From NCBI RefSeq assembly GCF_902506065.1, contig NZ_LR732912.1:2970842-3034841 (forward strand): 64,000 nt of DNA, written 5' to 3'. Source of the stretch: Arthrobacter sp. 9V (lineage in GTDB: Bacteria > Actinomycetota > Actinomycetes > Actinomycetales > Micrococcaceae). The notes beneath the pieces were generated by a model. It saw only the letters and a list, made by a program, of their open reading frames with translations, searched no databases and had not been told where the DNA came from. Made by a program: the position numbers and the translations under genes. Shown piece after piece: positions 16,068 to 25,384 of the stretch (position 1 is the first letter of the stretch; the number at the start of each line of letters is the position of its first letter).

Positions 16068-16186
16068 GCGGTTGTGAGAAGTCTCATTATTTTGGAGATT
16101 AGCCGTATGCTTAGTGGAGGGTGATCCAGACCGTGCAGTCCGAACGTCGGCTGCAGCGTTGCCCGTTAGCGATACGGGGCACATTT

Positions 16187-17275
16187 ATGTCACCCACGTC
16201 CACCGCTGAGCGCCCCAAAGCTCGCGCAATTCAACCAAATCCCGTCGTCCAGAGCTACTCGGAGCTCCTCAAGAGCGTCAAAGCAGCAGGACTCCTCGAA
16301 CGCCGTAGCGGCTTCTACATCTGGGTCTTCGTGGCTTTGGTGCTTCTCATGGCAGGCACCTGGCTGGGCTTCGCACTGATCGGCGAGTCCTGGTACCAGC
16401 TCCTGATCGCAGCAGCCGTTGGCATTCTGTGCACGCAGCTCAGCTTCCTTGCCCACGAGGCAGGCCACAAGCAGATCTTTGCTTCGCGCCGGGCCAATGA
16501 CTGGTCCGCCCGCCTTCTTGCCACCGGAGTTGCCGGCATCAGCTACTCCTGGTGGGAACAGAAGCACGGAGCCCACCACAACCACCCCAACGTCATCTCC
16601 AAGGATCCGGACATCCGGAACAATGCCTTGGTGTTCTACGAAGACGCTGCAGCCGAGCGTAAAGGCCGCCTGGCTTTCCTCACCAAGAAGCAGGGCTGGT
16701 TCTTCTTCCCGCTCCTGACCCTCCTGGGCTTGAGCCTGCAGTTCGACTCCCTTCGCTTTGTCTTCGGCAAGCAAAAAGTACGCCACCGCTGGGTAGAGAC
16801 GCCCATCCTGGTCACCAGGCTTGCCGCCCTCCCGGTTCTGGCGTTCACCTTCCTGCCCATTGGAATGGCATTCGCCTTCCTGGGTGTACAGATTATGGTT
16901 TACGGCTTCTACATGGGTGCCTCGTTCGCCCCGAACCACAAGGGCATGCCTGTCCTCCCCAAGGACAGCCGGGTGGACTTCCTCAACCGCCAGATCCTCA
17001 CCTCGCGGAATATCTCCGGTGGCATCTTCATGGACTTCCTCCTGGGTGGACTGAACCGTCAGGTGGAGCACCACTTGTTCCCGGACATGGCTCGTCCCCA
17101 CTTGTACAAGGCCACAAAAATCGTGCGCGAGTTCTGCGCCAAGCACTCCATCACCTATACGGAAACCACGCTGATGCAGTCCTACGGGATCGTAGTCAGA
17201 TACCTCAATGACGTAGGCCTGGCAGCAGGCCGCGGCTTCGACTGCCCCGTCGCTTCGACGCACGGACGCTTCTAG
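16187..17275 (+). CDS. Membrane fatty acid desaturase
   Basis: A di-iron membrane desaturase of 362 residues. The three histidine boxes are HEAGH at about 90, HGAHH at about 127 and QVEHH at about 292; the Q-x2-HH form is typical of front-end and related acyl-lipid desaturases. Hydrophobic pairs lie before box 1 and between boxes 2 and 3. It has no cytochrome b5 domain, so it needs an external electron donor. I chose the ATG at 16187 with GGGG upstream; an earlier ATG at 16121 would add 22 non-conserved residues. It diverges from argC across 167 bp. Regiospecificity cannot be read from the sequence. Confidence 0.88.
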   Translation: MSPTSTAERPKARAIQPNPVVQSYSELLKSVKAAGLLERRSGFYIWVFVALVLLMAGTWLGFALIGESWYQLLIAAAVGILCTQLSFLAHEAGHKQIFASRRANDWSARLLATGVAGISYSWWEQKHGAHHNHPNVISKDPDIRNNALVFYEDAAAERKGRLAFLTKKQGWFFFPLLTLLGLSLQFDSLRFVFGKQKVRHRWVETPILVTRLAALPVLAFTFLPIGMAFAFLGVQIMVYGFYMGASFAPNHKGMPVLPKDSRVDFLNRQILTSRNISGGIFMDFLLGGLNRQVEHHLFPDMARPHLYKATKIVREFCAKHSITYTETTLMQSYGIVVRYLNDVGLAAGRGFDCPVASTHGRF

Positions 17276-18436: not shown

Positions 18437-21400
18437 GTGAGCACAGAACATCCCGCTGGGGCCGGCACGACGCCTGCCCTGATGACGTACCGTCCCCAGC
18501 TACCGGGCGGCCCCTTGGCCCCGGTCGAGCGCACCCTCGTGGACATCCTGGAAGAGACCGCGGCATCTTTCCCGGAGGCTTCGGCACTGGATGATGGTCA
18601 CAAGTCATTGAGCTACACCGAGCTGCTCAAGGCGGTCCGCGCCTTTGCCGCGCAGCTGAACAGCGCAGGGCTCGGCCCAAGGGACAAAATTGGCGTCCGC
18701 ATCCCGTCCGGCACCAACGAGCTCTACGTCGCGATCCTGGGTATTCTTGTGGCGGGTGCAGCGTATGTTCCCGTGGATGCTGACGACCCCGACGAGCGGG
18801 CGCGTTTGGTGTTCGGTGAAGCCAAGGTTGGTGCGATCATCGCTGCAGGCCTGGACATCCAGCTAACAGGTCCAGCCCGGGAAGCTGTTTCCATGCCCGC
18901 CCAGCCGGGGTTGGACGACGACTCATGGATCATTTTCACGTCCGGATCCACCGGCACTCCCAAGGGCGTTGCGGTCAAGCACCGTTCCTCGGCCGCATTC
19001 GTCGATGCTGAAGCCCGCATCTTCCTCCAAGCGGATCCCATCGGACCCCAGGACCGTGTGCTGGCCGGCCTGTCCGTAGCCTTCGACGCTTCCTGCGAGG
19101 AGATGTGGCTGGCTTGGCGTCACGGAGCTTGTTTGGTACCCGCGCCACGGGCCCTTGTTCGCACCGGCATGGACCTGGGGCCATGGCTCATCAACCACGG
19201 CATCACCGTAGTTTCCACCGTGCCTACCCTTGCCGCCCTCTGGCCTGCGGAGGCGCTGGAAAACGTTCGCCTGCTCATCTTCGGCGGTGAAGCATGCCCG
19301 CCTGAACTGGCCGAACGCCTTGCAGTGGACGGCCGTGAAGTCTGGAACACCTACGGTCCCACCGAGGCCACAGTCGTTGCCTGCGCCGCTCCGCTGGGCG
19401 GACCCGGCCCCGTGCGGATTGGACTTCCGCTGGACGGTTGGGACCTCGCCGTCGTCGATTCGCAGGGAGTCCCGGTCGCTGAAGGTGAGATCGGAGAACT
19501 GATTATTGGCGGGGTAGGGTTGGCCCGCTACCTGGATCCTGCCAAGGACGCCGAGAAGTACGCCCCCATGACCACCCTTGGATGGGATCGCGCCTACCGT
19601 TCGGGCGACTTGGTGCGATTCGAAGCTGAGGGCCTGATCTTCATGGGCAGGGCCGATGAACAGGTCAAACTCGGCGGACGCCGGATCGAACTTGGCGAAG
19701 TGGACGCGGCGCTTCAGTCCTTGCCGGGTGTTGCCGGCGCGGCTGCGGCAGTGCAGACGACGGCAGCCGGCAACCAGATCCTGGTTGGATATCTGGCCCC
19801 GGTTGACGGTTATGAACTGTCAATGGATGAGGCCCGCCGTCTTCTGGGCGAGAGCCTCCCGGCTGCTTTGATCCCCTTGCTGACCGTGGTGGATTCGCTT
19901 CCCACCAAAACCAGCGGCAAAGTGGATCGCCATGCGCTCCCGTGGCCACTGGCAGGAGCCGGCGCCACCGAGGCAGGCAACGCCCCGCTGAACCTGCCCG
20001 ACGACTCCCGCTGGGTGGTGGAGCAGTGGGAGTCTGTACTGGGCAGTCCCGTCAGTTCGCTGGACGCTGATTTCTTCGCCTACGGTGGCGGGTCCCTGGC
20101 TGCAGCCCAACTCGTCTCGGCGCTCCGGGTCCGCTACCCCACCATCACCGTTGCTGAAATCTATGCCACGCCGCGGGTCGGCGCGCTGATCGACACGGCC
20201 CGCCAATCACTCCCCGACGGCGGCTTGCCTGGGCCCGCTGCTGAGCGCACCGTCCGCCCTACCGCGTTGAAGTCCCAAATTTTCCAGGTTCTGATGGGCG
20301 TCCCATTGCACATCTTGGTGGGGATGCGCTGGCTGACTTACCTCATGGCAGCCAACAGGCTGCTTGCCGACTTTGCGGGCTTCGCTGCGGCGCCCGTGGT
20401 CTCATGGTGGTGGATAGCAGCATCATGGCTCGTCTTTGTCAGCCCCTTGGGCCGAATGGCGATCTCCGTAGTTGCTGCCAAACTCCTGCTTGGCAGAATC
20501 CAACCCGGGACCTACCCGCGTTCCGGCAAAACCCACCTGCGGTTGTGGCTGGCCGAACAGATTCAAGACCTGTCGGGCGCCATCGGCCTGGCCAGCGCGC
20601 CCTTTGTTCCCTATTACGCACGCGCATTGGGTGCGAAGATCGGCAAGGACGTCCACCTGCACTCCTTGCCTCCGGTCACGGGTCTGCTGTCCCTGGGCAG
20701 CGGAGCGAATATCGAGCCCGAAGTGGACCTTTCCGGCTGGTGGGTTGACGGAGATTCAGTCCACATCGGGCAAATTCATGTGGGTGCCGGCGCCGTTGTA
20801 GGCGCACGCAGCACCCTCATGCCCGGAGCCACCATCGGCGCGGGCGCGCACGTAGAGGCGGGATCCGCTGTGTTGGGCAAGGTGAAAGCCGGACACCTGG
20901 TGGCCGGCTCTCCCGCGGAGCGCCGCGGTAAGGCCAAACACGAATGGCCGGAAACCGTCAGCCGGCGGCCCTTGGCTGACCGGCTCTGGTTCTCAGCCTT
21001 CACCAGCGCTTCGGCTCTGCTGGCACTTATCCCCTATGTCTCTGCGTTCGCCGGCGCGCTGGTGGTCCTGGCTTTCATCCAGGGCCACGAGTCGCTGCAA
21101 ACAGCCCTCCCACAGATTGCCCTGTCCGTCCCGCTGGCCGCCCTGGTGTGGTTCTTTGGCAACCTGGTTCTCATCCTGATTGTTGCCAGGCTCCTGGGCT
21201 TGGGGCTCAAAGAGGGGTACTACCGGGTGCGCAGCCGCATCGGTTGGCAGGTCTGGGCCACGGAACGCCTCCTGGACATGGCCCGGGACCTCCTCTTCCC
21301 CGTCTACGCGAGCCTCTTCACACCCCTTTGGCTGCGACTCCTCGGCGCCAAGGTAGGCAAAAACGTGGAAGCCTCAACCGTGCTTCTTGTTCCTAAAATG

Positions 21401-22393
21401 ACCACCATCGGCGACGGCGCCTTCCTTGCCGACGACACCATGGTGGCCTCGTACGAGCTTGGCGGCGGATGGATGAAGATCGCTCCAGCCAAGATCGGGA
21501 AGCGTTCCTTCCTGGGAAACTCAGGGATGACCGCCGCAGGACGGAACGTTCCCAAGAACTCCCTCGTCGCGGTGCTCTCTGCCACACCTGCCAAAGCAAA
21601 GTCAGGCACCTCCTGGCTGGGCAGCCCGCCCGTCAGGTTGCGCCGCACCGCCGTCGATGCTGACCAGACCCGAACCTTCCGCCCGGCTTTCAAGCTGAAG
21701 ATCGCACGGGCATTGTGGGAACTGGGCCGCCTGGTTCCGGTCATCCTCACCGTGGCCATCGCCGTCAGCGTGATGCTGGTCCTGGACTGGATCGCCCGCG
21801 GATGGGGTTACTGGATCGCTGCTGTCCTTGGTGGCGTGGTGATGCTGGTGGCTGGAGGTGTTGCAGCCCTGAGCTCCATCCTGGCCAAGTGGGTTCTGGT
21901 GGGGACCATTCGCTCAGGCGAACATCCGCTCTGGAGCTCGTTCATTTGGCGCAACGAGGTGGTGGATACTTTCATAGAGATGGTGAGTGCACCGTGGTTT
22001 GCCCGGTCCGCCGCCGGAACTCCTGCCCTGGTGTGGTGGTTGCGCGGACTCGGAGCCAAGATCGGCCGCGGAACGTGGTGCGAAAGCTATTGGTTGCCCG
22101 AAGCAGACCTCGTAACTCTGGGCGAGAACTCCACCGTCAACCGTGGCTGCGTGATCCAAACGCATCTCTTCCACGACCGTGTGATGAGCCTGGATACCGT
22201 GACGCTCGGCAACGGAGCCACCATGGGACCTCACGGGGTCATCCTCCCCGCAGCGAGCATCGGCGACGGCGGTACTGTTGGTCCGGCGTCGTTGGTTATG
22301 CGCGGCGAAACCGTCCCGGCCGGGACATACTGGATGGGCAACCCAGTGAGCCCGTGGGTGGGTCCGTCGGCACAAGCGCCGCGCCTGAAGTAG
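18437..22393 (+). CDS. Pls/PosA-type membrane non-ribosomal peptide synthetase (A-T-membrane/hexapeptide domains)
   Basis: A 1318-residue synthetase, close to the length of the Streptomyces poly-epsilon-L-lysine synthetase Pls. Residues about 20-520 are an adenylation domain: FTSGSTGTPKG near 167, FDASCEE with D217, NTYGPTE, and catalytic K495 in SGKVDRH. The carrier domain has YGGGSL with phosphopantetheine Ser S553. The C-terminus is membrane-embedded, with hydrophobic pairs separated by three soluble segments bearing left-handed beta-helix (hexapeptide) character, such as IGAGAHV, IGDGAFL and LGENSTV. It has no canonical condensation or thioesterase domain. In Pls the C-terminal part links amino acids iteratively. 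The GTG at 18437 has GGAAAG upstream. An M1 peptidase follows after 11 nt. Confidence 0.9.
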   Translation: MSTEHPAGAGTTPALMTYRPQLPGGPLAPVERTLVDILEETAASFPEASALDDGHKSLSYTELLKAVRAFAAQLNSAGLGPRDKIGVRIPSGTNELYVAILGILVAGAAYVPVDADDPDERARLVFGEAKVGAIIAAGLDIQLTGPAREAVSMPAQPGLDDDSWIIFTSGSTGTPKGVAVKHRSSAAFVDAEARIFLQADPIGPQDRVLAGLSVAFDASCEEMWLAWRHGACLVPAPRALVRTGMDLGPWLINHGITVVSTVPTLAALWPAEALENVRLLIFGGEACPPELAERLAVDGREVWNTYGPTEATVVACAAPLGGPGPVRIGLPLDGWDLAVVDSQGVPVAEGEIGELIIGGVGLARYLDPAKDAEKYAPMTTLGWDRAYRSGDLVRFEAEGLIFMGRADEQVKLGGRRIELGEVDAALQSLPGVAGAAAAVQTTAAGNQILVGYLAPVDGYELSMDEARRLLGESLPAALIPLLTVVDSLPTKTSGKVDRHALPWPLAGAGATEAGNAPLNLPDDSRWVVEQWESVLGSPVSSLDADFFAYGGGSLAAAQLVSALRVRYPTITVAEIYATPRVGALIDTARQSLPDGGLPGPAAERTVRPTALKSQIFQVLMGVPLHILVGMRWLTYLMAANRLLADFAGFAAAPVVSWWWIAASWLVFVSPLGRMAISVVAAKLLLGRIQPGTYPRSGKTHLRLWLAEQIQDLSGAIGLASAPFVPYYARALGAKIGKDVHLHSLPPVTGLLSLGSGANIEPEVDLSGWWVDGDSVHIGQIHVGAGAVVGARSTLMPGATIGAGAHVEAGSAVLGKVKAGHLVAGSPAERRGKAKHEWPETVSRRPLADRLWFSAFTSASALLALIPYVSAFAGALVVLAFIQGHESLQTALPQIALSVPLAALVWFFGNLVLILIVARLLGLGLKEGYYRVRSRIGWQVWATERLLDMARDLLFPVYASLFTPLWLRLLGAKVGKNVEASTVLLVPKMTTIGDGAFLADDTMVASYELGGGWMKIAPAKIGKRSFLGNSGMTAAGRNVPKNSLVAVLSATPAKAKSGTSWLGSPPVRLRRTAVDADQTRTFRPAFKLKIARALWELGRLVPVILTVAIAVSVMLVLDWIARGWGYWIAAVLGGVVMLVAGGVAALSSILAKWVLVGTIRSGEHPLWSSFIWRNEVVDTFIEMVSAPWFARSAAGTPALVWWLRGLGAKIGRGTWCESYWLPEADLVTLGENSTVNRGCVIQTHLFHDRVMSLDTVTLGNGATMGPHGVILPAASIGDGGTVGPASLVMRGETVPAGTYWMGNPVSPWVGPSAQAPRLK

Positions 22394-22404
22394 ATTGGAC
22401 GGAT

Positions 22405-23748
22405 ATGGCCGCACCAATCCCCACTCCCGTGACCGAAGCCGACCCCTACGCCTTGAACCACGGCAGCAGCAGTTACCGCGTGGACCGGTACGAGTTGGAC
22501 CTCGACGTCAGGCTGGGCAGCAACAAGCTGATCGGCAAGGCTGTCCTGCGATGCACGGCCTTGGAGCCCATGGCTCAGATCGTCCTTGACTTGGTTGGCC
22601 TGAAGGCCGGCAAAGTTCAGCTGGACGGCAAGAAGGTCCAGAAGTTCAGTCACCGGGCCGAGCACCTGGTGCTGACGCCCGCTTCCGCGCTCAAGGCCGG
22701 CCAGCAGTTTTCCTTGGAGATCCGCTACGACGGCAACCCCCAGCCGCGCCGTGGCCTGTGGGGCGATGTTGGATGGGAAGAACTGAACGACGGCGTCCTG
22801 GTGGCCGGACAGCCCAACGGTGCAGCGTCCTGGTTCCCCTGCAACGACCACCCCCGCTACAAGTCGAGTTTTCTCATCTCCGTGACCACGGACGACAACT
22901 ACCGTCCGGTGTGCAACGGCACCTTGATCTCCCACTCGCGCAAGTCCAGCAGGGAGACCTGGGTTTACGAACAAACTGAACCCATGGCCACCTACCTTGC
23001 CACGGTTCAGATCGGCCGCTACGTCAAGGTTCCCTTGCACGTGGACGATACCCATCTCAGGGTCCCCCAGTTCGTGGCAGTCACGCCCGAAATGGCAGTT
23101 GACGCGCTCCAGGGCCTGCGCCGGCAGCCGGATATGATGCGGACCTTCGAGGATTGCTTCGGCCCGTATCCGTTCGCGGATTACACCTCAGTGGTAACCG
23201 AGGACGAGCTGGAAATTCCCCTCGAAGCCCAGACGGTCTCTATTTTCGGCCGAAACCATATGCGTGATGCCTGGGATTCGCAGCGACTGATAGCCCACGA
23301 ACTTTCCCACCAGTGGTTCGGTAACTCCCTAACGGTTACCAGCTGGAAAGATATCTGGCTGCACGAAGGCTTTGCCTGCTATGCCGAGTGGTTGTGGTCC
23401 GAAGAATCCCGCACTATGACGGTTACTGCCAGGGCGACAGCCGCGTGGAAAAGGCTCGACGCCGAGCCGCAGGACTTGCTGGTGGGAGATCCCGGTCCGG
23501 AGCTGATGTTTGACGACCGCGTCTACAAGCGGGGAGCCCTTGCTGTCCACGCCGTGCGGATGGCGGCCGGCGATGAAGCGTTCTTTGGCTTCCTGCAGCA
23601 CTGGACTACCACCAACCGGCATGGCTCAGTGTCAACGGAGACGTTCATTGAGGCCGCGGATTCGTTCATTCCGGGTTTTGATTGTGCCTCGACTATCCGG
23701 CCGTGGCTGTATGAAGTTTCGCTGCCTCCGCTTCCCTCGGCACGTTAA
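22405..23748 (+). CDS. M1 family zinc metallopeptidase
   Basis: A 447-residue M1 peptidase lacking the long C-terminal domain of PepN. The zinc motif is HELSHQWFGN at 298-307 with third ligand E321 (HExxH-x18-E). The GAMEN exopeptidase motif is degenerate; PLEAQTVS lies at its place, keeping the Glu. No signal peptide is evident, so it is probably cytosolic. GGACGG precedes the ATG at 22405, 11 nt after the synthetase stop, so it is probably cotranscribed. A role in trimming or degrading that enzyme's product is inference from position. It overlaps the convergent phosphopantetheinyl transferase by 4 bp. Confidence 0.88.
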   Translation: MAAPIPTPVTEADPYALNHGSSSYRVDRYELDLDVRLGSNKLIGKAVLRCTALEPMAQIVLDLVGLKAGKVQLDGKKVQKFSHRAEHLVLTPASALKAGQQFSLEIRYDGNPQPRRGLWGDVGWEELNDGVLVAGQPNGAASWFPCNDHPRYKSSFLISVTTDDNYRPVCNGTLISHSRKSSRETWVYEQTEPMATYLATVQIGRYVKVPLHVDDTHLRVPQFVAVTPEMAVDALQGLRRQPDMMRTFEDCFGPYPFADYTSVVTEDELEIPLEAQTVSIFGRNHMRDAWDSQRLIAHELSHQWFGNSLTVTSWKDIWLHEGFACYAEWLWSEESRTMTVTARATAAWKRLDAEPQDLLVGDPGPELMFDDRVYKRGALAVHAVRMAAGDEAFFGFLQHWTTTNRHGSVSTETFIEAADSFIPGFDCASTIRPWLYEVSLPPLPSAR

Positions 23749-24383
23749 TCGAGGGCCAGGGCGGCAACCAATCCTTCAGGCAGTTCCCTTTCGGTGACAT
23801 CCCTCAGTCCGGGCAGTTCCAGCACGTCCAGCTCTGCGGGGTTCCGCCTCAGGCCTTCCCCTGTCATCTTCAGCCACGCCTCTTTGCGTGCCCACAGGCG
23901 GGCCCTCTGGCTGGCTTGATCCTGCGCCGGGACGGACGCCAGATAGTTTTTCTCGTTGGTGGTTAATGCGACGTCGTCAAAGCCCTCAAAGACAACCCCG
24001 CTTATCACTTCAAGGTCCACGCCCAGCCTCAGGCCCTCCGCTGGATTTACGACGGCGGCCAGCAACACCCAGCCGGACGCCCGGGAGGCGCTCAGCACCA
24101 AAGGCGCAGGGCCGCCGTCGAGCATGAAACCGGGGCGGCCGTGGTCCTGGCGGGGGCCGCACTGCGGGCAATGATAATCCGGCATGAGGCGGCGGGACTC
24201 CACTCCCAGGAGCGTCGCCGCGAAGTGCATTGCGGCCAACCGACCGGCCACGAACTCTTCACGGTCTGCAGGGTTGGCGTAGCGGAGGGCGCGCCCCTGG
24301 GCGGGTTCACCCAGCACCTGAAGGCTGGCGTCAGGAATGCGGGGGTCATGGAGCTCGCGCAGCTCAAGCACCGGGTTATCCAT
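23745..24383 (-). CDS. 4'-phosphopantetheinyl transferase (Sfp type)
   Basis: A 212-residue Sfp/AcpT-superfamily enzyme, expected to move phosphopantetheine from CoA to a carrier-protein serine. Motifs are GVDLE (D123, E125) for Mg2+ and WARKEAWLK at 164-172; HCPQCG at 71-76 is a CxxC patch seen in many actinobacterial relatives. The ATG at 24383 follows AAAGGGG; a GTG 15 nt upstream is less well placed. It is convergent with the synthetase-peptidase pair and is the natural candidate to activate S553 of the synthetase, though it could also serve other carriers. Confidence 0.9.
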   Translation of the reverse strand: MDNPVLELRELHDPRIPDASLQVLGEPAQGRALRYANPADREEFVAGRLAAMHFAATLLGVESRRLMPDYHCPQCGPRQDHGRPGFMLDGGPAPLVLSASRASGWVLLAAVVNPAEGLRLGVDLEVISGVVFEGFDDVALTTNEKNYLASVPAQDQASQRARLWARKEAWLKMTGEGLRRNPAELDVLELPGLRDVTERELPEGLVAALALD

Positions 24384-24454
24384 CACGACCCCTTTCACAG
24401 CTTTGTCCCCTGCAAACTGTAGCTTGTGTCTTGCGGGCTCCTACCCGGAAAGCA

Positions 24455-24517: not shown

Positions 24518-25384
24518 CTACTTTACCGACGTCAAGTAGTTCGCCAGCGTCGGGGTGATGCGGGTGCCGGAGTTGAAGCTGCCTCCGTTGGTGTGGATGG
24601 CCACGATAGTGCTGGAGCTGTTGTAGACGGGGGCGCCGCTCTGGCCGCCGTAGGTGTCCATCTTGTAGAAGACCTTCTCGGTTTGAGTGCTCTCAATAGC
24701 GCCGGTCATGGACCACATGGTGCCGAATGCCTTGTCCCCCGGATAACCGCGGACAGTGGCGCTGGTCCCGGTCAGGCTTGCAGTGGTTCCCGTGTAGTTA
24801 AGCCAGCCCGTCGTGTTGCCAATAGTGCAGTCGAGCTTGATGATGCCCCAGTCGGCATTGGTGTTGGCCGAGTCGATCCAACGCTGGTCCGTCAGGAGTT
24901 GCGTGGCGCCACAGGTACCGTAAGGGTCCGTGGCTCCATTGCGGCCCGGCGCCACTTTCACGCCCCAGGAGTAATCCGCCGTTGAACCTGTGCCGCCTTC
25001 ATGGACGCAGTGACCTGCGGTCAACACAGTGTCGTCGGAGATCAGCGCGCCGGAGCAAATGTATCCGCCGTTAAATTCGATCTGAACGATGGACTTGTTC
25101 GGCGACGCCGTGGTGTTGGTGATCCGAACGCGGCCATCAGCGCCGATGACGGAGTCCGTGGAGGCGCCGCCGCTCTTGGCGGGCGCAGAGATGGTGTATT
25201 TGTCAGCCAGTGGTGAGGCCGCAGAACCGGAAACCTGCGACCTGTCTACTGTGTGGGATACAGGCTGGACCTCGGCGGTGGTTGCTTGCGGCGTCGACTC
25301 TGACGCTACTGCGGCTCCACCAAGCGAGGACGTCAAAGCCATTACTGCAGCCCCGACAAGCAAAGCAACGTTCTGCCTTTTCAT
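24518..25384 (-). CDS. Secreted trypsin-like serine protease (V8/glutamyl endopeptidase type)
   Basis: A 288-residue secreted protease. Residues 1-28 form a signal peptide (KR, hydrophobic core, AVA cut site), followed by a propeptide-like region to about 80. The catalytic triad is H125 in TAGHC, D178 in NADWGIIKL and S249 in GGQSGAP, the S1B/V8 arrangement. Two Cys pairs (C110/C126 and C158/C186) could form disulfides. AAAGG precedes the ATG. A near-perfect inverted repeat 60-90 nt upstream may control it. The secreted substrate is unknown. It stands alone between the phosphopantetheinyl transferase gene and pheT. Confidence 0.9.
   Translation of the reverse strand: MKRQNVALLVGAAVMALTSSLGGAAVASESTPQATTAEVQPVSHTVDRSQVSGSAASPLADKYTISAPAKSGGASTDSVIGADGRVRITNTTASPNKSIVQIEFNGGYICSGALISDDTVLTAGHCVHEGGTGSTADYSWGVKVAPGRNGATDPYGTCGATQLLTDQRWIDSANTNADWGIIKLDCTIGNTTGWLNYTGTTASLTGTSATVRGYPGDKAFGTMWSMTGAIESTQTEKVFYKMDTYGGQSGAPVYNSSSTIVAIHTNGGSFNSGTRITPTLANYLTSVK

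What the first reader, a model, noticed from the sequence alone, without database searches (positions are those of the whole stretch)
18437..24383. Pls-type poly-amino-acid synthetase with M1 peptidase and its own phosphopantetheinyl transferase
The 1318-residue A-T protein with a membrane C-terminus built of hexapeptide-like soluble domains has the length and layout of Streptomyces poly-epsilon-lysine synthetase, an iterative enzyme. Here it is packed with a metallopeptidase 11 nt downstream that could trim or degrade a cationic polymer, and a convergent Sfp-type transferase that could activate S553. The block interrupts the usual argC-pheT neighbourhood. A small cationic homopolymer or oligopeptide from this group of soil bacteria could be a new compound.
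Basis: partly seen in the sequence, partly recalled or inferred. Interest (0 to 1): 0.78.

Follow-up and report, generated by a model that had tools for sequence, protein, structure and literature searches.

The report
Soil bacterium's polylysine synthetase gene block
This is the known kind of membrane enzyme that strings lysine into the antimicrobial polymer epsilon-polylysine, next to a likely polymer-cutting enzyme and the enzyme that probably switches the synthetase on; it is an ordinary member of a described family, and the activating-enzyme neighbour is its less documented feature.

Summary
In detail: a 1318-aa A-T-membrane synthetase (18437-22393), an M1 metallopeptidase 11 nt downstream (22405-23748) and a convergent Sfp-type PPTase whose stop overlaps the peptidase stop. 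The synthetase is Pls-type: Pls/PosA model 699 bits against a cut-off of 423; A domain 68% identical to solved epsilon-poly-L-lysine synthase 7WEW; pocket residues DAESIGTVVK, the same in 80 of 80 named relatives. An M1 gene follows pls on the same strand in all 80, as in the published pls-pldII operon. The expected product is therefore epsilon-poly-L-lysine, not a new compound; Pls homologs in Arthrobacter were reported in 2021 (PMC8117764). The less documented part is the PPTase: it is the genome's only Sfp-size PPTase, and the Pls T domain the only carrier detected besides an ACP-size one. A PPTase candidate was found in 113 of 114 family genomes with the synthetase, mostly downstream and convergent, and peptidase and PPTase are both missing from the pheT side in 20 of 20 synthetase-negative relatives examined. 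New member of a known kind; low to moderate interest. Production is untested.

The parts
18437..22393 (+). Pls-type synthetase, 1318 aa: A domain about residues 29-507, T domain 525-586 with S553, membrane C-terminal region 616-1304
   Evidence: TIGR02353 698.9 bits, cut-off 423.1; PF00501 and PF00550; 7wew A domain 664 bits
22405..23748 (+). M1 metallopeptidase, 447 aa, probable PldII counterpart
   Evidence: PF01433 83.4 bits and PF17900 71.2 bits; HExxH, downstream E and Y invariant in 81 of 81 sequences; after pls in 80 of 80 named loci
23745..24398 (-). Sfp-type phosphopantetheinyl transferase, 217 aa (212 aa if the ATG at 24383 is the start)
   Evidence: PF01648 45.1 bits, cut-off 25; G126, D128, W169, K172, E173, K177 invariant in 19 of 19 aligned sequences

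Best explanation
The block is an epsilon-poly-L-lysine module. The A domain activates L-lysine and loads it on the phosphopantetheine of S553 (inferred from pocket and family). The membrane C-terminal domains join lysines through the epsilon-amino group and the polymer leaves the cell (inferred from characterised Pls). The Sfp-type PPTase next door makes holo-Pls; genome content is shown, the reaction is inferred. The M1 peptidase is the PldII counterpart and breaks the polymer down, probably for self-protection or turnover (inferred). In relatives the genes are mostly kept together and are missing together from the site where pls is missing (shown for the genomes examined).
For: Pls/PosA model over its cut-off across its full length. 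Best solved relative is epsilon-poly-L-lysine synthase 7wew at 664 bits; the next chain has 373; 68% identity. Pocket DAESIGTVVK in 80 of 80 named relatives, and the same letters read in the 7wew alignment. Published pls-pldII pairs. Only two ACPS-superfamily frames and two PP-binding frames in this genome. PPTase candidate in 113 of 114 synthetase-positive family genomes.
Against: No product, expression or enzyme data. C. variabile, with a working pls, made no detectable polymer in culture. Hydropathy at the threshold used shows five, not six, membrane stretches in the C-terminal part. The peptidase shows no export signal by eye, whereas PldII is reported outside the membrane. PldII itself was not aligned. 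The PPTase is unlinked in 12 of 103 genomes, and 41 of 80 named loci have no PPTase in the fetched stretch.
Confidence: 0.85

Rival explanations
1. The synthetase makes a different cationic homopolymer or short oligopeptide (ornithine, diaminobutyrate, diaminopropionate, or a modified lysine oligomer).
For: The Pls/PosA family includes enzymes for other diamino acids (PosA: ornithine), and small pocket changes shift the preference. Product length cannot be read from sequence.
Against: Pocket identical to 7wew and to 80 of 80 relatives. The other known synthetases are described as 31-33% identical to Pls with a different gene context, whereas this protein is 57-58% identical to Pls-like proteins of three large genomes and 68% to the 7wew A domain.
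Confidence: 0.07
2. The PPTase is a general Sfp-type enzyme that happens to sit here and has no special tie to Pls.
For: 20 of 83 synthetase-negative family genomes have a PPTase hit; in 9 of those 20 no large carrier protein was found. It is unlinked in 12 of 103 genomes. Sfp-type enzymes often serve many carriers (recalled).
Against: In this genome no other non-ACP-size carrier was found. Presence follows the synthetase over 197 genomes (105 both, 9 synthetase only, 20 PPTase only, 63 neither). Linked within 8 kb in 84 of 103 plus 5 more. Where the linked copy is absent in six Arthrobacter loci, all six genomes have one elsewhere.
Confidence: 0.25
3. The M1 enzyme is a housekeeping aminopeptidase unrelated to the polymer.
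For: The closest solved structures are two-domain M1 zinc metalloproteases (6a8z, 6iff; Deinococcus M1dr by recall), for which I know of no link with a polymer.
Against: Next to pls in 80 of 80 named loci over several actinobacterial families; position matches the published polymer-degrading PldII; the genome has two other, larger M1 proteins.
Confidence: 0.08

Closest known systems
epsilon-poly-L-lysine synthetase Pls of Streptomyces (A domain in PDB 7wew; S. albulus origin by recall) and of Corynebacterium variabile (PMC8117764)
   Same: Domain order A-T-membrane region, full Pls/PosA model, pocket residues, downstream peptidase
   Different: Different host group; a convergent PPTase next to the peptidase, which I did not see mentioned for the Streptomyces or Corynebacterium loci in the passages read
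[quoted passage not shown] albulus (PMC9223678, PMC4361855, PMC8506220, PMC9205021: passages)
   Same: Peptidase encoded immediately after pls on the same strand
   Different: 11-nt gap here against a 4-bp overlap in S. albulus; PldII is reported outside the membrane, no export signal seen by eye here; sequences not compared directly
PosA, delta-poly-L-ornithine synthetase of Acinetobacter baumannii (PMC10522769: section 6 and passages)
   Same: Same NCBI family model, A-T-membrane layout
   Different: Ornithine preference; a single-gene operon without neighbours
Two-domain M1 zinc metalloproteases 6a8z/6iff
   Same: Full-length match of the peptidase, no C-terminal M1 domains
   Different: No known tie to a polymer synthetase (recalled)

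Membership tests
Pls (epsilon-poly-L-lysine synthetase) | Pls/PosA C-terminal model TIGR02353 over its curated cut-off | tested here: met
   698.9 bits, cut-off 423.1, model positions 2-695 of 695
Pls (epsilon-poly-L-lysine synthetase) | One A and one T domain, no condensation or thioesterase domain | tested here: met
   Pfam finds AMP-binding, PP-binding and two hexapeptide models only
Pls (epsilon-poly-L-lysine synthetase) | Lysine-type A-domain pocket as in confirmed Pls | tested here: met
   DAESIGTVVK in the window, in 80 of 80 named relatives and read in 7wew; the mapping of the ten positions is recalled
Pls (epsilon-poly-L-lysine synthetase) | Six transmembrane stretches around three soluble domains | tested here: inconclusive
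   Simple hydropathy gives five stretches in the C-terminal part; the whole-region model fits end to end
Pls (epsilon-poly-L-lysine synthetase) | Peptidase gene directly downstream | tested here: met
   11-nt gap here; 80 of 80 named loci
Pls (epsilon-poly-L-lysine synthetase) | Makes epsilon-poly-L-lysine | not testable with these tools
   Needs a culture or an enzyme assay
PldII | Adjacent to pls, metallopeptidase with intact catalytic residues | tested here: met
PldII | Sequence orthology with S. albulus PldII | not tested
PldII | Cleaves epsilon-polylysine | not testable with these tools
   Needs an assay
Sfp-type PPTase | ACPS superfamily, about 200 aa or more, with the GVD and WxxKE motifs | tested here: met
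   PF01648 45.1 bits, 217 aa; motifs in the alignment
M1 metallopeptidase | HExxH plus downstream Glu, catalytic Tyr | tested here: met
   H298, E299, H302, E321, Y374 in 81 of 81
M1 metallopeptidase | GAMEN exopeptidase motif (recalled) | tested here: not met
   Replaced by a motif with invariant P272 and E274 in 81 of 81; by eye 6a8z also lacks it, so it does not exclude the family

The most novel reading that the evidence does not exclude
In Micrococcales the epsilon-polylysine system is a three-gene module with its own dedicated PPTase: synthetase, degrading peptidase and activating enzyme are kept and lost together, so that activation of the synthetase is a private step and a handle for waking these apparently silent clusters.
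Probability: 0.6. Interest if true: 0.35.

Novelty: new member of a known kind. Interest (0 to 1): 0.27.

Why it matters
Epsilon-polylysine is a commercial food preservative, and Pls clusters of non-filamentous actinobacteria may be silent: C. variabile carries a working pls but no polymer was seen in culture (PMC8117764). A linked and apparently dedicated PPTase gives a testable reason to supply it in heterologous hosts, and a marker of intact modules. Beyond that the block is expected biology.

Tried and rejected
A new polymer or oligopeptide was considered and set aside because pocket and whole-protein similarity are those of Pls. The idea that the missing GAMEN motif marks a new kind of peptidase was set aside: by eye the solved two-domain M1 enzyme lacks it too. 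The idea that 9 synthetase-positive genomes without a PPTase profile hit speak against a tie was set aside: with the Pfam ACPS model 8 of 9 have a second frame of 185 aa or more, in 5 of them about 2.5 kb downstream of the synthetase and convergent; the ninth (G108) shows only a 58-aa frame at a contig end. Structure prediction and fold search were not used, as the sequence matches were decisive.

Paper searches: no paper; 3 papers; 4 papers; no paper; 2 papers. For a PPTase linked to pls, searches gave five papers; I read passages of three (PMC4361855, PMC4668381, PMC8949500) and saw no such report; the other two I judged unrelated from the listing. PMC8506220 and PMC10522769 hold no mention of phosphopantetheine transferases under the terms used. 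PMC8082909 was opened for passages and held nothing relevant. The library holds open-licence papers only, so print elsewhere is not excluded.

Limits of the counts. The linkage count rests on rows that I retyped. Both listings were cut by the tool; I also left out second and further synthetase copies of several genomes, the rows with frames of about 1040-1160 aa, and weak or second PPTase rows. 103 of the 114 positive genomes had a row that I used. The 114 include family members that are not of the lysine type; rows were not sorted by substrate. The script prints an upstream gene on the other strand as 'convergent'; it is in fact divergent (7 genomes). The Fisher test is not corrected for relatedness. 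The PPTase profile search scored at most 16 candidates per genome. The 20 synthetase-negative genomes were chosen by me, mostly larger ones, out of 83, and the 43 likewise (20 with PPTase, 23 of the 63 with neither).

Full report
What is there. The window lies on a 4.8-Mb contig of a genome whose closest named relatives by this protein are Paenarthrobacter: the synthetase is 95% identical to that of P. aurescens TC1 and 90-92% to three others. The synthetase runs 18437-22393 (1318 aa), the M1 peptidase 22405-23748 (447 aa) after an 11-nt gap, and the PPTase from 24398 or 24383 to 23745 on the other strand; the stop codons of the last two overlap in TTAA. S553 is the T-domain serine.

What the synthetase is. 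Pfam finds AMP-binding, PP-binding and hexapeptide repeats. NCBIfam finds TIGR02353, Pls/PosA family, 698.9 bits against 423.1, positions 2-695 of 695. The best solved relative is the A domain of epsilon-poly-L-lysine synthase, 7wew, at 664 bits; the next chain has 373; identity is 68%. The ten pocket residues read DAESIGTVVK in 80 of 80 named relatives, and the same letters can be read in 7wew; the mapping of the ten positions is recalled from the GrsA scheme. A simple hydropathy scan shows five, not six, strong membrane stretches in the C-terminal part, which I count as inconclusive. The expected substrate is L-lysine and the expected product epsilon-poly-L-lysine.

The peptidase. The zinc site and the catalytic tyrosine are intact in 81 of 81 sequences, and the usual GAMEN motif (recalled) is replaced in all. 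Its closest solved relatives are two-domain M1 zinc metalloproteases, matched over residues 20-445. It follows pls on the same strand in 80 of 80 named loci, from Arthrobacter to Nocardia, Rhodococcus, Kribbella, Brevibacterium and Amycolatopsis; in 76 within 200 bp, in the other four 602-2143 bp away. In three large genomes of another family (unnamed, 8.9-9.9 Mb) a 57-58% identical Pls is followed by a 47-48% identical M1 enzyme. This matches the published pair: pldII beside pls with a 4-bp overlap (PMC4361855, passage), an epsilon-PL-degrading aminopeptidase (PMC9223678, passages), and the pls-peptidase operon of Corynebacterium variabile, whose Pls makes epsilon-PL in S. coelicolor (PMC8117764, parts 1-2 of 4). 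That paper also lists Arthrobacter, Glutamicibacter and Micrococcus among Pls carriers. Loss of Pld and PldII is said to leave production and chain length unchanged (PMC8506220, passage), so turnover or self-protection is more likely than trimming of the product. PldII is reported outside the membrane; the window's peptidase shows no export signal by eye, and I cannot settle that.

The PPTase. The genome has two ACPS-superfamily matches, a 118-aa frame (AcpS size) and this one, and two PP-binding matches, a 90-aa frame (ACP size) and the Pls T domain. Within the reach of those Pfam models the pair is exclusive. Over 197 genomes of the family, 114 have a synthetase over the TIGR02353 cut-off and 133 have a hit to a PPTase profile of 19 sequences. 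Without 8 weak hits the table is 105 both, 9 synthetase only, 20 PPTase only, 63 neither; Fisher p 1e-23, not corrected for relatedness. Of the 9, 8 have a second ACPS-superfamily frame of 185 aa or more, so 113 of 114 have a candidate. Linkage: of 103 genomes with usable rows, 84 have the PPTase within 8 kb: 74 downstream and convergent, 7 upstream and divergent, 3 upstream on the same strand; in 12 it is present but not within 8 kb. Of the remaining 7, 5 have one about 2.5 kb downstream and convergent. In the 80 named loci, 34 have it within 1.5 kb of the peptidase, 33 of them convergent; 5 have it elsewhere in the fetched stretch; 41 have no hit there, several of them cut short, among them every Nocardia, Rhodococcus and Tsukamurella locus and six Arthrobacter loci. 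All six of those Arthrobacter genomes have a PPTase elsewhere. So the arrangement is shared by Micrococcaceae and some Microbacteriaceae and Intrasporangiaceae (family names by recall) and is not universal, even within Arthrobacter.

The site. I examined 13-16 kb on the 3' side of pheT in 20 of the 83 synthetase-negative family genomes. In 19 of 20 argC and the oxidoreductase gene are found there, with an argC-pheT gap under 3.3 kb in 12 and of 5.9-14.1 kb, filled by other sequence, in 7; in the window the gap is 9.55 kb. None of the 20 has a peptidase or PPTase match in the stretch at E up to 0.01. One (G112, L159) keeps about 80 residues of the pls start, 49% identical, followed by a stop, which reads as a remnant of a loss. 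A member of the same genus (G177) has argC, oxidoreductase and pheT with a 2.7-kb gap, no synthetase over the cut-off and no PPTase profile hit genome-wide. Joint absence fits a functional unit, though one deletion of neighbours needs no functional link. As a check of the PPTase logic, in 43 synthetase-negative genomes a large carrier protein (E below 1e-8, frame over 600 aa) occurs in 11 of 20 with PPTase and in 1 of 23 without (5 of 23 if weaker matches in frames of 550 aa or more are counted). PPTase presence tracks a client carrier, imperfectly.

Verdict. An ordinary Pls-PldII type locus with a conserved PPTase companion. The part I did not find in print, within and the passages read, is the PPTase linkage. 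Production is unproven.

Noticed in passing
L140:992-4603 (+) with L140:5281-7032 (+); L139:3272-6427 (-): Family genomes also hold Pls-like proteins without an A domain but with three (L139) or four (L140) tandem carrier domains before the Pls/PosA membrane region; in L140 an A-T protein follows on the same strand. One search lists 18 further-type rows with frames of 1037-1158 aa and the full model (L139 among them); only these two were looked at.
   Followed up: partly
L141:7108-11031 (-): A more distant A-T-membrane synthetase, 27% identical to the window's, with a visibly different pocket motif by eye; substrate unknown.
   Followed up: no
window 24518-25384 (-): Trypsin-like secreted-looking protease (PF00089, 44.9 bits) between the PPTase and pheT; matched in 5 of 80 named loci, four of them Paenarthrobacter.
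   Followed up: partly
L159:4763-5002 (-): Remnant of the first 80 or so residues of pls in a synthetase-negative relative, ending in a stop.
   Followed up: partly
window 16121-17275 (+): Desaturase-like gene (histidine boxes by eye, not scanned) between argC and the oxidoreductase gene; matched in many Arthrobacter relatives, not in others such as L017, L019 and L036.
   Followed up: no
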